Source: Paludibacteraceae bacterium (lineage in GTDB: Bacteria > Bacteroidota > Bacteroidia > Bacteroidales > Paludibacteraceae). Taken from it: a stretch of DNA of 64,000 nt. Under the pieces are notes generated by a model. It made no database searches and was not told the DNA's origin. It saw only the letters and a program-made list of their open reading frames with translations. Both the position numbers and the translations under genes were made by a program. The stretch is from positions 1 through 64,000 of the forward strand of contig JAFWXW010000018.1 in assembly GCA_017517845.1 (NCBI GenBank), read 5' to 3'. This document shows, in pieces, positions 52,117-56,352 of the stretch; the stretch's first letter is position 1; each line of letters starts with the position of its first letter.

Positions 52117-52923
52117 TTATTTAATGTTATTTCTTTTAATGGAATTAGAGACAATTATTATACTTAACTCATAAAGTAAGTATAATGGTACTGTTACCAA
52201 TAATAATGTAAAAATGTCTGCTGTAGGAGTAATAATTGCAGCTAGGATACATAAAACTACAATTGCATGTTTCCTATACTGAACAAGCATAGGCTTATCT
52301 ATCAAGCCTAACTTGGCTAAAAAGTATGCAAGAATTGGTATTTCAAATAGAATCCCAAGAAGCAATGATAAGACTAATAACGTTGAAATATAAGAATCTA
52401 GCGAAATTTGATTTACTACTATCTCTTGCACCTGATATGTACTTAAAAAATGAAATGCAAAAGGGAAAATAATATAGTAATTCAGCAACACTCTTAGTGC
52501 AAACAATAATGTCCCGCAAAATATTAACATTATGGAATATTTTTTTTCTTGTTGATATAAAGCAGGAGCAATAAAACCATATAGTTGAATTATCAAATAC
52601 GGGAACGCCACCAAAACACCCATTATTACAGAAACTTTTAAGTGTGTTGTAAATTGCGATGCAAGTTCTGTATTTATAAATTCAACAGAAAAATCACCGA
52701 TACAAAGCGATGTCCAATTAGTTTTTTCTGCTAAATAACATAGGCCTTTAAATAATACAAAATCTGACTTAGAAGGCGCAAATACTACATCAAATAATAT
52801 CTCTTTAAAACAGAATGCTATAACTGAACAAACCAACCAAACTGCTAAACATCGAAAAATAACATTTCTTAGAACTTCGAGGTGTTCCCAGAATGTCATA
52901 TTTTCATTATTTTTGCTCGTCAT
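52117..52923 (-). CDS. tatC: Twin-arginine translocase TatC
   Basis: A 268-residue TatC, the RR-signal receptor of the Tat translocase, with six membrane helices. The N-terminal FWEHLEVLRN motif, which binds twin-arginine signals, is present. The later family regions FPYLIIQLYGFIAPALYQQEKK and ILFEIPILAYFL are recognisable. The frame start overlaps tatA by 17 nt. An alternative ATG at 52899 (MTFWEHLE) lies just after the tatA stop and is equally plausible. It is located directly behind the CXXX-peptide maturation genes. Confidence 0.95.
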   Translation of the reverse strand: MTSKNNENMTFWEHLEVLRNVIFRCLAVWLVCSVIAFCFKEILFDVVFAPSKSDFVLFKGLCYLAEKTNWTSLCIGDFSVEFINTELASQFTTHLKVSVIMGVLVAFPYLIIQLYGFIAPALYQQEKKYSIMLIFCGTLLFALRVLLNYYIIFPFAFHFLSTYQVQEIVVNQISLDSYISTLLVLSLLLGILFEIPILAYFLAKLGLIDKPMLVQYRKHAIVVLCILAAIITPTADIFTLLLVTVPLYLLYELSIIIVSNSIKRNNIK

Positions 52924-53101
52924 CTTTTTGCTCTGTCTTATTGTTTACGTCATTCTCCATTTCACTCATTCCTTGCTTGAACGATTTTACACCCTTACCT
53001 AATCCTTTCATTAGTTCAGGAATTTTCTTACCTCCAAATAATAGTAATACTATTAAGATTATAAAGATAATTTCAGGAGCTCCAATCATAAGTAGTACCA
53101 T
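52907..53101 (-). CDS. tatA: Twin-arginine translocase TatA
   Basis: A 64-residue TatA/TatE protein that forms the Tat pore. One membrane helix (about residues 8-22) is followed by the hinge FGGKKIPELMKGLGKGVKSF and an amphipathic helix, then an acidic tail. No tatB is present, as usual in Bacteroidetes minimal TatAC systems. It starts 6 nt after the CXXX accessory gene and overlaps tatC. Confidence 0.95.
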   Translation of the reverse strand: MVLLMIGAPEIIFIILIVLLLFGGKKIPELMKGLGKGVKSFKQGMSEMENDVNNKTEQKDDEQK

Positions 53102-53107
53102 AAGTTG

Positions 53108-53401
53108 TTATTTATTGCAGTTACACTCGTTATTACAAATTAAATAAATATCGCAAGTATCAAAGTTTATTTCCCAATTCCCATCTTCGCAAGATTCCCA
53201 TTGGTATTTTTCAAACATTTCATCCCACCAAATTTGAAATTTCGCACTAGTTTCACTCATATCTGTTACCAATTTTTCATACAAAGCAGTATTATCAGCA
53301 GTTAAAATCTTGGCCAATTCTGCTAATCCATTACGACGTTCAAATAAGGTTTGAATTGCATCTTTTTCTTCTATTGTTACTTTTCCTACTATTTTTTTCA
53401 T
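53108..53401 (-). CDS. CXXX repeat peptide modification accessory protein
   Basis: A 97-residue soluble protein. The first two thirds are helical and charged. The C-terminus is Cys-rich (CEDGNW, DTCDIYLICNNECNCNK). Its size and place match the family annotated in NCBI as 'CXXX repeat peptide modification system protein', as I recall it. A role as precursor-binding partner of the maturases is inference. The start at 53401 is preceded by AAGGAGG and lies 1 nt after the stop of the preceding gene. An 8-codon upstream extension is unlikely. Confidence 0.78.
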   Translation of the reverse strand: MKKIVGKVTIEEKDAIQTLFERRNGLAELAKILTADNTALYEKLVTDMSETSAKFQIWWDEMFEKYQWESCEDGNWEINFDTCDIYLICNNECNCNK

Positions 53402-53402
53402 A

Positions 53403-54356
53403 TTAAAATTCCTCCTTAACATCAAAAGGGTCTAAATAATTTATTTCTTTTATTTCATTCTCTAAGACGAAACCTGTATCTTTCAATTTATTGCTCAAAT
53501 CTCTAGAAGCATTTCTCTCAATATGCGCCATAACACATTGCTGACGTGATGGTGTATTATTATCCCATGTCAATTTTTGATTCAACCAGATGCAACGATT
53601 ACAGTGATATGCATCGCAGATCCTACAAAGTGGAGCACGTTCTAATTCCAAAAGTTGTTTATTTGGAATATTAATACCCACTTCTAAATCACCTACACTT
53701 CGAGAAGCATCCTTAGTTTTATGATTCATTCTGGTTGAAACACCCATTTGTTCATCATAATAAAAGGCTGGGCATAAATAGAATTTTCCATTAGGAGCTA
53801 ATGTAATGTTTTCTACACCTGCATCACAATTGTGCATTTCATTCAGTCTCAACCTATCAGTCAAAATATTTATCTCTGGTGAATTTCCACCTTTGTAAAT
53901 ATTAAGTAAAACAGAATTTAGCATTTCCAATGCAGTTCTATAATCTTCTATAAGTTCATCTTTAAAATTCTCTATATCTGTAATACTAATATTTAAACGA
54001 GTAACTTTTGGCAATAAAAGAGCAATATCATATTGTTTTGCAAGAAAATCAGCAATAGCCAAACGTAAAACAACATTTTTTCTCTCTACATTCGTTGGTA
54101 CAGAATCATAAACTAACACGTCTTTACCTATTTTTATATGATCTATTGTTTCAATTAAATCATTATATTCTTTAGGTAGTTCATATTCTGGATATACAAA
54201 CTGAATCATTAGATTTTCTTTCATGCTAAATAATATAGCCTCACGAAGCACTTCTAAAGGAATCAATCTCTTCTCTTTAAGTGGATTATCAGCATGACAA
54301 TAAGAGACACTAGTGTCATCTAACAAGATAACTATATATTGATAATATTTTTTCAT
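53403..54356 (-). CDS. CXXX repeat peptide maturase (SPASM-like half)
   Basis: A 317-residue protein. No CxxxCxxC radical SAM motif is present in the N-terminal half. The C-terminal half has a SPASM-like Cys set: CDAGVENITLAPNGKFYLCPAF, then CRICDAYHCNRCIWLN and a last QCVMAH. This pattern would bind auxiliary iron-sulfur clusters. It agrees with the family named 'CXXX repeat peptide maturase' in NCBI, as I recall it. It probably partners the true radical SAM enzyme encoded 2 nt upstream. I chose the ATG at 54356 over a non-ATG start three codons earlier. Confidence 0.82.
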   Translation of the reverse strand: MKKYYQYIVILLDDTSVSYCHADNPLKEKRLIPLEVLREAILFSMKENLMIQFVYPEYELPKEYNDLIETIDHIKIGKDVLVYDSVPTNVERKNVVLRLAIADFLAKQYDIALLLPKVTRLNISITDIENFKDELIEDYRTALEMLNSVLLNIYKGGNSPEINILTDRLRLNEMHNCDAGVENITLAPNGKFYLCPAFYYDEQMGVSTRMNHKTKDASRSVGDLEVGINIPNKQLLELERAPLCRICDAYHCNRCIWLNQKLTWDNNTPSRQQCVMAHIERNASRDLSNKLKDTGFVLENEIKEINYLDPFDVKEEF

Positions 54357-54358
54357 AA

Positions 54359-55620: not shown

Positions 55621-55673
55621 ATTACTAGGTACTAATCATATTTAGAGACCCTTATATGTTAGTCCCTAGTAAT
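55621..55673 (-). terminator. Hairpin between precursor and maturase genes
   Basis: ATTACTAGG (55621-55629) pairs with CCTAGTAAT (55665-55673). Inner ACTAA/TTAGT and CATAT/ATATG pairs extend the stem. Read on the minus strand the T tract after it is weak. It may act as a partial terminator or RNA-stabilising 3' structure that yields more precursor than maturase. Confidence 0.6.
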
Positions 55674-55693
55674 TTCTTTTTACTGCTAGTATA

Positions 55694-55945
55694 TTAATAT
55701 CTACTAGCAGAAGAGCAACCACTCATACAAGTTCTATAACAGGCAGCACTACAACTACTACATGTTCCTTTACAGGTATTAGAACAAGTCGCAGTACATG
55801 CATCTATAGTACAAACTCCAGCGAAAGATACTGACGGTATGTTTGCAACGATTAATGTACCTAAAACAGGCAATGTTGCTTTTGCTGCTTTTTTGAAGAA
55901 TTCGCGCCTTGTTTGAATTTCTTCATTTTTGTTTTTCCCGTTCAT
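55694..55945 (-). CDS. Tat-exported CXXX-repeat peptide precursor 1
   Basis: An 83-residue precursor. The N-terminus carries a twin-arginine signal (TRREFFKKA; Arg 13-14), a hydrophobic stretch (about 23-41) and a likely cleavage site after SFA (about 42). The mature part has nine Cys, mostly spaced CxxxC (CTATCSNTCKGTC, then CSAACYRTCMSGC). The frame stays open 11 codons upstream, but the ATG at 55945 aligns with the second precursor. It is a likely substrate of the radical SAM and SPASM-like proteins downstream and of TatAC. Confidence 0.85.
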   Translation of the reverse strand: MNGKNKNEEIQTRREFFKKAAKATLPVLGTLIVANIPSVSFAGVCTIDACTATCSNTCKGTCSSCSAACYRTCMSGCSSASRY

Positions 55946-55962
55946 AATAAAAATATAATTAC

Positions 55963-56005
55963 AATTATCCCTACTCACTTTATAGGCTTTTCAGGGTACT
56001 CCTAT
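55963..56005 (-). promoter_or_regulatory. Conserved leader element of precursor 1
   Basis: On the minus strand it holds GTGAGTAGGGATAATT and, about 25 bp upstream, AGGAGTACC. The same block precedes precursor 2 at 56368-56413. It replaces the usual TAnnTTTG box, which I do not find here. It may be an activator or alternative sigma factor site. Confidence 0.5.
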
Positions 56006-56058
56006 TATTGGTATTTATTCACTGTTTTTTCACTAATAATAATCTAGAAGAAATATTT

Positions 56059-56352
56059 TTAGTGATCAAACCTCACACTACCTTTACAGCCTCCTAAACA
56101 ACTACCCTTGCAAACAGCTTTACAACCATTTTTACAACTAAATCTACAAGTCGTTTCGCATGATCTATCGCAACTATATTTACAACCTGTAAAACATCCC
56201 CCTGTACATGTTGAACAGCCCTGTGCTTCTACTTGTTGTAAAGGTAAACTTGATAAAACAACAGCACCTAAAACAGGCAATGTTGCTTTGGCTGCTTTTT
56301 TGAAGAATTCGCGTCTACTTTGAATTTCTTCAGGTTTACTTTTTTCGTTCAT
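56059..56352 (-). CDS. Tat-exported CXXX-repeat peptide precursor 2
   Basis: A 97-residue precursor. The twin-arginine signal reads SRREFFKKA (Arg 13-14), followed by a hydrophobic stretch (about 23-38) and a likely cleavage after VEA (about 43). The mature part has 12 Cys, ten of the eleven intervals being exactly CxxxC (for example CFTGCKYSCDRSC). The Tat part is almost identical to that of precursor 1, while the repeats differ, so the two arose by duplication. It is first in the operon. Confidence 0.88.
   Translation of the reverse strand: MNEKSKPEEIQSRREFFKKAAKATLPVLGAVVLSSLPLQQVEAQGCSTCTGGCFTGCKYSCDRSCETTCRFSCKNGCKAVCKGSCLGGCKGSVRFDH

What the first reader, a model, noticed from the sequence alone, without database searches (positions are those of the whole stretch)
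52117..56352. CXXX-repeat RiPP pathway with its own Tat translocase
Seen: two precursors with perfect twin-arginine motifs and 9 or 12 Cys in CxxxC spacing, a radical SAM-SPASM enzyme, a SPASM-like partner, a Cys-tailed accessory protein, tatA and tatC, in one direction with gaps of 1-6 nt or overlaps from the maturases to tatC. Known: Tat exports folded or cofactor-loaded proteins. Inference: the peptide is cross-linked or metal-loaded inside the cell, folds, and leaves by a dedicated Tat pore. The product could be a secreted redox or metal-binding peptide or an antimicrobial. The maturase families are named in databases, but I know no characterised product or proof of Tat coupling.
Basis: partly seen in the sequence, partly recalled or inferred. 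Interest (0 to 1): 0.85.

Follow-up and report, generated by a model that had tools for sequence, protein, structure and literature searches.

The report
Peptide pathway with its own exporter
An uncultured Bacteroidales bacterium keeps in one operon two cysteine-repeat peptides that begin with twin-arginine signals, the enzymes predicted to cross-link them, and a TatA-TatC pair that likely exports them; relatives mostly keep the same gene order, although their tatC genes come from three separate lineages.

The parts
56059..56352 (-). Precursor 1: 97 aa, Tat-type signal (SRREFFK, hydrophobic stretch, VEA cleavage-like site), then 12 Cys mostly every fourth residue
   Evidence: (TIGR04117 46.8 bits, under the cut-off of 50)
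55694..55945 (-). Precursor 2: 83 aa, TRREFFK Tat-type signal, SFA cleavage-like site, 9 Cys
   Evidence: (TIGR04117 43.9 bits, under the cut-off of 50)
54359..55588 (-). Radical SAM/SPASM peptide maturase, TIGR04115
   Evidence: 621.4 bits, cut-off 350; CX3CX2C and SPASM Cys invariant in 78 aligned rows; nearest solved relative 5wgg
53403..54356 (-). TIGR04119 'CXXX repeat peptide maturase': radical-SAM-like fold (model) without the SAM-cluster motif, 7 SPASM Cys kept
53108..53401 (-). TIGR04116 accessory protein, beta-alpha-alpha-beta-beta model; predicted leader binder or chaperone (guess)
52907..53101 (-). TatA
52117..52923 (-). TatC, the only TatC found in this 81%-complete genome
55946..56033 (-). 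5' leader of precursor 2, 84% identical to that of precursor 1: apparently duplicated with the gene
56353..56440 (-). 5' leader of precursor 1

Best explanation
This operon encodes two Cys-repeat peptides with twin-arginine signals, a radical SAM enzyme, a partner predicted to share its fold but lacking the SAM-cluster motif, a small accessory protein, and a TatA-TatC pair; the enzyme is predicted to cross-link the cysteines in the cytoplasm, and the folded product would then likely leave through the operon's own Tat pore. Shown: gene content, order, RR signals, homologies, operon conservation, three TatC lineages in one slot, and loss of the SAM-cluster motif in the partner. Inferred: (1) tatAC was replaced as a unit; (2) the Tat signal doubles as the RiPP leader (E-L-Q-S-R-R-E-F-F-K-x-A-A-K-x-x-L-P-x-L-G is kept beyond what Tat is known to need); (3) TIGR04116 binds that leader and holds the peptide back from Tat until modified, as redox-enzyme chaperones such as TorD do (recalled); (4) TIGR04115 forms thioethers like its relatives CteB and PapB, with TIGR04119 as scaffold or electron relay; (5) the product stays in the periplasm or, in species with lipoboxes, on a membrane, as a rigid Cys-rich or metal-binding peptide rather than a diffusible bacteriocin.
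For: Families over cut-off. Operon in 69 of 78 loci with room (TatC), 73 of 78 TatA, 78 of 78 TIGR04116, 78 of 78 rSAM (the loci were found through TIGR04119, so its presence is by construction); no other neighbour of 80 aa or more in over 11 of 81 loci. RR in 119 of 126 distinct precursors within 80 residues; of the other 7, 2 have it further in (over-long ORF), 3 are cut by a contig end, 2 have it in another frame. L-P-x-x-G in 106 of 121. Family: 29 of 32 TIGR04119 genomes have adjacent TatC (one, G403, across a 116-bp contig-end overlap); 32 of 32 have some TatC against 192 of 326 others (Fisher p 1.4e-7, no phylogenetic correction). No TatC outside such clusters in 15 of 32. Three operon TatC lineages: 3 changes against a shuffled mean of 44; one clade rejected, p-AU 4.7e-6. 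L119 vs L108: rSAM 77%, TIGR04119 85%, TIGR04116 83%, but TatA 46%, TatC 41%. Contrast: L006 and L162 have fused maturases, small Cys-repeat peptides without RR, ABC transporter genes beside them, and no TatA, TatC or TIGR04116 hit in the loci scanned. TIGR04119 fold and motifs.
Against: No product, cross-link or export has been observed. 9 of 78 operons lack tatC (5 also tatA); 7 of those 9 genomes have TatC elsewhere, so a general Tat can serve, and 2 (L142's and L158's) show none. TatC is common in the family without TIGR04119. The RR-motif scan is insensitive: G462, with a TatC, showed no credible substrate either, and the relaxed list for G000 was cut at 74 of 102. PF10518 found no Tat signal in the genome at E<=1, the precursors included. 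The precursor profile was built from RR-bearing seeds, so RR-less targets could be missed, though cut ones without RR were found. For the window's TatC lineage the clash with the maturase tree rests on weaker branches. The TIGR04116 model matched no solved fold.
Confidence: 0.7

Rival explanations
1. A general Tat translocase merely sits next to the CXXX genes; in small genomes it is the cell's only Tat and exports several substrates, the peptides among them.
For: TatC occurs in 192 of 326 family genomes without TIGR04119; 15 of 32 TIGR04119 genomes show no TatC outside the cluster, so any other substrate would have to use it; 7 of 9 operons without tatC lie in genomes with TatC elsewhere.
Against: 14 of 32 genomes have a second TatC match besides the operon's (in G659 the second lies at a contig end and may belong to its second, cut cluster); the slot holds three TatC lineages; in G444 (100% complete, one TatC) strict and relaxed RR scans found only the precursor as a plausible N-terminal Tat signal, though the scan is insensitive.
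Confidence: 0.2
2. The precursors are not cross-linked RiPPs but metal-loaded or cluster-loaded Cys-repeat peptides; the SPASM proteins insert or hold iron-sulfur or another metal, and Tat exports the loaded fold.
For: Dense CXXX repeats; a partner with only auxiliary-cluster cysteines (89 of 89); Tat classically exports cofactor-loaded proteins (established knowledge).
Against: TIGR04115 keeps the SAM-cluster motif (78 of 78 aligned; 86 of 86 rows); its nearest solved relative is the thioether-forming enzyme of 5wgg, with PapB next among NCBIfam models.
Confidence: 0.2
3. The product is a secreted antimicrobial (bacteriocin-like) ranthipeptide.
For: Related rSAM maturases make ranthipeptides; two or more precursors in 28 of 80 loci.
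Against: No conserved immunity gene, leader protease or ABC transporter among neighbours of 80 aa or more; 40 of 119 precursors have a lipobox-like site by a crude pattern, which points to anchoring; mature parts are long repeats of up to 64 Cys.
Confidence: 0.08

Closest known systems
NCBIfam CXXX-repeat peptide system (TIGR04115, TIGR04116, TIGR04117, TIGR04119, TIGR04114)
   Same: Same maturase, partner, accessory and target families.
   Different: The NCBIfam names that I saw mention no exporter. Here tatAC is part of the operon and the target's leader is a Tat-type signal.
PapB/PapA (freyrasin) and CteB (SCIFF) ranthipeptide maturases
   Same: Radical SAM/SPASM enzymes that tie Cys to nearby residues; PapB acts on C-x3-D repeats (PMC9413430, passages); the nearest solved structure is 5wgg/5why, which is CteB by recall and by its title, cited for CteB in PMC10352776.
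   Different: PapB model far under cut-off (196.6 against 340); here most Cys-Cys distances are 4, with Ser, Gly and Thr between and little Asp; a partner without the SAM-cluster motif stands beside the enzyme; precursors carry a Tat-type signal.
PCAT-exported Bacteroidales RiPPs
   Same: Radical SAM RiPP clusters in Bacteroidales (PMC10352776, abstract and passages).
   Different: The clusters analysed there link peptidase-containing ABC transporters with GG leaders (abstract); 'Tat', 'twin' and 'CXXX' occur 0 times in its main text.
Tat export of redox enzymes with dedicated chaperones (TorD/DmsD type; recalled)
   Same: Cytoplasmic maturation, then export of a finished fold by an RR signal; a small partner beside the substrate genes.
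   Different: The substrate is a Cys-repeat peptide, and the translocase itself is in the biosynthetic operon.
Fused maturase systems: Anaerococcus plasmid pAPRE01 (L006) and an IMG/VR contig of unstated host (L162)
   Same: L006 carries TIGR04115 and TIGR04119 domains in one polypeptide (487 and 279 bits); L162's 737-aa protein matches both my profiles and has radical SAM and SPASM domains; each has a small Cys-repeat ORF beside it.
   Different: No RR signal in those peptides, ABC transporter genes nearby, no TatA, TatC or TIGR04116 hit in the loci scanned.

Membership tests
CXXX-repeat peptide system (NCBIfam) | rSAM maturase over TIGR04115 cut-off | tested here: met
   621.4 against 350 bits
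CXXX-repeat peptide system (NCBIfam) | TIGR04119 and TIGR04116 over cut-off beside it | tested here: met
   214.1 against 150; 97 against 50
CXXX-repeat peptide system (NCBIfam) | Target peptide with Cys every fourth residue | tested here: met
   12 and 9 Cys; in relatives 2,025 of the 2,312 Cys-Cys distances in the 12 commonest classes are 4
CXXX-repeat peptide system (NCBIfam) | Target over curated TIGR04117 cut-off | tested here: inconclusive
   46.8 and 43.9 against 50 (E 2.4e-12, 2e-11) over most of the profile; 1 of the 7 relative precursors scanned passes (L062, 51.6)
Ranthipeptides | Non-alpha-carbon thioether cross-links in the product | not testable with these tools
   needs mass spectrometry
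PapB family (NF047865) | Score over curated cut-off | tested here: not met
   196.6 against 340
Tat translocase | TatA and TatC over curated cut-offs | tested here: met
   TIGR01411 67.5 against 53.9; TIGR00945 163.9 against 132.7
Tat substrate | N-terminal S/T-R-R-x-F-x-K and a hydrophobic stretch | tested here: met
   SRREFFK and TRREFFK with mean hydropathy 1.95 and 1.85 over the best 13 residues
Tat substrate | Match to the Pfam Tat-signal profile PF10518 | tested here: not met
   no match in the genome at E<=1; a 21-position profile that seems insensitive here, so I claim only that the peptides look and likely behave like Tat substrates
Tat substrate | Export depends on Tat | not testable with these tools
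   needs tatC deletion and localisation
Radical SAM enzyme (for the TIGR04119 partner) | CX3CX2C SAM-cluster motif | tested here: not met
   0 of 89 rows; the modelled fold matches 5wgg all the same
SPASM domain (for the TIGR04119 partner) | Seven auxiliary-cluster cysteines in order | tested here: met
   89 of 89 rows match my pattern; PF13186 hits 18 of 40 rows, all weak (best E 0.0028)

The most novel reading that the evidence does not exclude
A RiPP class whose leader peptide is a twin-arginine signal and which carries a private, operon-encoded Tat translocase, so that radical cross-linking, folding proofreading and export are one line; in Bacteroidales the pathway has used tatAC pairs from three Tat lineages in the same slot, and its accessory TIGR04116 is a Tat gatekeeper for a peptide natural product.
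Probability: 0.55. Interest if true: 0.85.

Novelty: new variant of a known kind. Interest (0 to 1): 0.74.

Why it matters
RiPPs are normally exported through ABC transporters (established knowledge). A RiPP that leaves through Tat would show that some peptide natural products are exported as finished folds, and would give Tat biology something rare: a translocase tied to one tiny, genetically linked substrate, with natural swaps of TatAC that ask directly which parts must co-evolve with the signal. It also gives context to four named but, as far as I found, uncharacterised families in gut and rumen Bacteroidales, and shows a radical-SAM relative without its SAM cluster kept beside a live one.

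Tried and rejected
PF10518 as a Tat-signal detector: no match in the genome at E<=1, not even the precursors, so I used RR DNA patterns. Strict pattern: all 28 matches in G000 (20), G444 (4) and G481 (4) were looked at; the only in-frame N-terminal RR plus hydrophobic stretch was on the CXXX precursors. Relaxed pattern: G444's 76 matches were all listed; I filtered them by eye on the codons and fetched 18 (one more, L216, had been seen); none looked like a Tat signal. For G000 74 of 102 were listed and 12 fetched; one hit (L287), a short frame antisense to a long ORF, was dropped; G409's were not listed. Control with the strict pattern: G409, with a second TatC, gave its precursor and one further substrate (L307, lipoprotein-like); G462, with a TatC, gave only a 27-residue frame. 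So absence of other substrates is weak evidence.

Conserved neighbours beyond the operon: none in over 11 of 81 loci, among ORFs of 80 aa or more within 7 kb. TIGR04116 against solved folds: best E 1.5, nothing usable; PDB sequence searches with the TIGR04119 and TIGR04116 alignments gave only chance-level hits. Plasmids: of 65 records one strong relative, on an Anaerococcus plasmid (47.9% over 93%; the next listed is 25.6%; 10 rows seen). Viral contigs: 36 pattern matches, 1 relative.

Papers: ten searches. 'CXXX repeat peptide' and 'TIGR04115' give 0 papers; no listed title or abstract start joins CXXX maturases with Tat, but I opened only three papers, by passages (PMC10352776, also its abstract; PMC10470005; PMC9413430). 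The library lacks most subscription papers, so this is no proof of absence. Haft and Basu 2011 was seen only as a citation.

Limits: the 80 loci are the best of 157, found with patterns from the host family; 77 more distant ones were not read. The 139-row tree holds some loci fetched twice; the 63-row tree was thinned by hand from it after dropping long rows.
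Full report
What is there. On the minus strand of 52117-56352 seven genes run in one direction: two precursors with SRREFFK or TRREFFK signals followed by 12 or 9 cysteines, a radical SAM/SPASM maturase (TIGR04115), TIGR04119, TIGR04116, tatA and tatC. Gaps from the maturase to tatC are 2, 1 and 6 nt, then a 17-nt overlap. The genome (1.68 Mb, 81% complete) shows one TatC and one TIGR04115. 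Of 120 protein hits listed (5,218 found), the one with an organism name is from a Paludibacteraceae MAG, 92% identical over 96% of TIGR04119.

How common. In 395 genomes of the class only the window's own is over the TIGR04119 cut-off; in the family 32 of 358 genomes are (9 of a first draw of 120). A scan of GTDB species genomes found 157 relatives, of which the best 80 loci were kept and read. Nearly all names are Bacteroidota-type; L099 and L122 say only 'bacterium', and L142 is a MAG named Lachnospiraceae whose gene sits among Prevotella-type rows in the tree, so it is probably misbinned.

The Tat link. I annotated the loci with profiles built from the window's proteins. Of the 80 named loci, 2 end too soon (L086, L088). 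Of the other 78, 78 have the rSAM, 78 TIGR04116, 76 a precursor, 73 TatA and 69 TatC; in 67 the order TIGR04116-TatA-TatC is tight. Among ORFs of 80 aa or more, other neighbours recur in at most 11 of 81 loci, so tatAC belongs to the unit and no other transporter is seen to. The 9 without TatC are L095, L106, L126, L152 (TatA kept) and L105, L139, L142, L145, L158 (neither). Eight of the nine keep a precursor with RR, most with a Cys at the end of the hydrophobic stretch (lipoprotein-like); L126's is cut by the contig start. Seven of those nine genomes have a TatC elsewhere; L142's and L158's show none.

In the family (with loci) 29 of 32 TIGR04119 genomes have TatC beside it, counting G403, whose two contigs share a 116-bp end and whose second contig opens with TatA-TatC. 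In 15 of 32, 11 of them at least 90% complete, no TatC lies outside such clusters; 14 have a second TatC match (in G659 perhaps part of a second, cut cluster); 3 have only a distant one. All 32 have a TatC, against 192 of 326 others (Fisher p 1.4e-7); 23 of the 32 are one genus, so this p is optimistic.

Swapped translocases. In a 139-row TatC tree the 83 operon rows need 3 changes of label against a shuffled mean of 44. In a careful 63-row tree, holding them as one clade costs 118 log-likelihood units, p-AU 4.7e-6. The large lineage spans Paludibacteraceae, Prevotellaceae and Bacteroidaceae names; the window's lineage is a second; L119-L121 a third. The TIGR04119 tree does not follow this: the third lineage nests among rows of the first (starred branch); for the window's lineage the mixing rests on weaker branches. 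Gene by gene, L119 against L108 is 77, 85 and 83% identical for rSAM, TIGR04119 and TIGR04116 but 46 and 41% for TatA and TatC; L089 against L066 is 84, 78, 78 and then 42, 45%. So the pair was most likely replaced as a unit, at least twice, and the slot kept. I hold this to be the strongest sign that the pathway needs a Tat of its own.

The precursors. Of 126 distinct precursors, 119 show RR within 80 residues; of the other 7, two have it further in, three are cut by the contig, two have it in another frame. The search profile grew from RR-bearing seeds, so RR-less targets could be under-sampled. Among 121 with a readable signal, F stands at +3 from the first R in 98%, K at +5 in 92%, and L-P-x-x-G follows in 106: more residue conservation than Tat is known to ask for, which suggests that a maturase or TIGR04116 reads the same segment (inference). 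By crude patterns on 119, 40 have a lipobox-like site, 69 an AxA-like site, 10 neither. Among the 12 commonest Cys-Cys distance classes 2,025 of 2,312 are 4.

A contrast outside this group. On an Anaerococcus plasmid (L006) and an IMG/VR contig (L162) both maturases are fused; each has a short Cys-repeat ORF without RR, ABC transporter genes nearby, and no TatA, TatC or TIGR04116 hit in the loci scanned. Two cases only, but they suggest two export branches.

Other Tat substrates. In G000, G444 and G481 the strict RR scan found only the CXXX precursors, and the relaxed candidates fetched from G444 gave no further one. A control genome with a TatC also gave no credible one (G462), another gave one (G409), so this is weak support.

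Mechanism and limits. Most likely the peptide is bound by its Tat-type leader, cross-linked in the cytoplasm by TIGR04115 with TIGR04119, released by TIGR04116 when done, and exported by the operon's TatAC, then cut or lipidated. Cross-links, export, the chaperone role and the use of the product are inferred. No paper found in ten searches joins these families with Tat, but the library is partial.

Noticed in passing
window 15624-28511: A 4295-aa repetitive surface protein whose C-terminus looks like a gliding-motility/type IX secretion sorting domain, followed on the same strand by a 330-aa PorP/SprF-like protein at 14632-15624 (recognised from the sequence by recall).
   Followed up: no
window 51496-52107: Directly downstream of tatC, a signal-peptide protein with DnaJ-type CxxCxGxG-like cysteine motifs; no NCBIfam or Pfam match at E<=0.1; not among the recurring neighbours of relatives.
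   Followed up: partly
window 50023-50989: Two overlapping ORFs (50549-50989 and 50023-50607) that together resemble the intact TPR protein at 48979-49917, as if a second copy had a frame break (by eye).
   Followed up: no
window 54359-54364: The rSAM maturase ends in a Cys as its last residue; 81 of 86 rows do too. Its role is unexplained.
   Followed up: partly
window 55946-56033 and 56353-56440: The 5' leaders of the two precursors are 84% identical over 88-base stretches (GGAGTA...GAAAAGCCT...AAGTGAGTAGGGATAATT), so the duplication seems to have included a possibly regulatory leader.
   Followed up: partly
L085, L086, L095, L105, L106, upstream of TIGR04119: A secreted lipoprotein-like family recurs upstream in 5 loci, in L095 and L106 just before the rSAM gene; 3 of the 5 loci lack operon tatC.
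   Followed up: no
loci without operon tatC: L095, L105, L106, L139, L142, L145, L158: Their precursors nearly all show a lipobox-like Cys after the hydrophobic stretch: loss of operon tatC may go with lipoprotein-type precursors. Not tested statistically.
   Followed up: no
L073/L307 (genome G409): A lipoprotein-like protein with TRRSFLK lies about 4 kb from that genome's second TatC, so the second Tat may have its own linked substrate.
   Followed up: no
L112, L113: The rSAM gene reads as three overlapping pieces in two contigs of one MAG, a frame break or assembly error.
   Followed up: no
L134: The operon seems to hold a second TIGR04119, TIGR04116 and TatA set, with further precursors between.
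   Followed up: no
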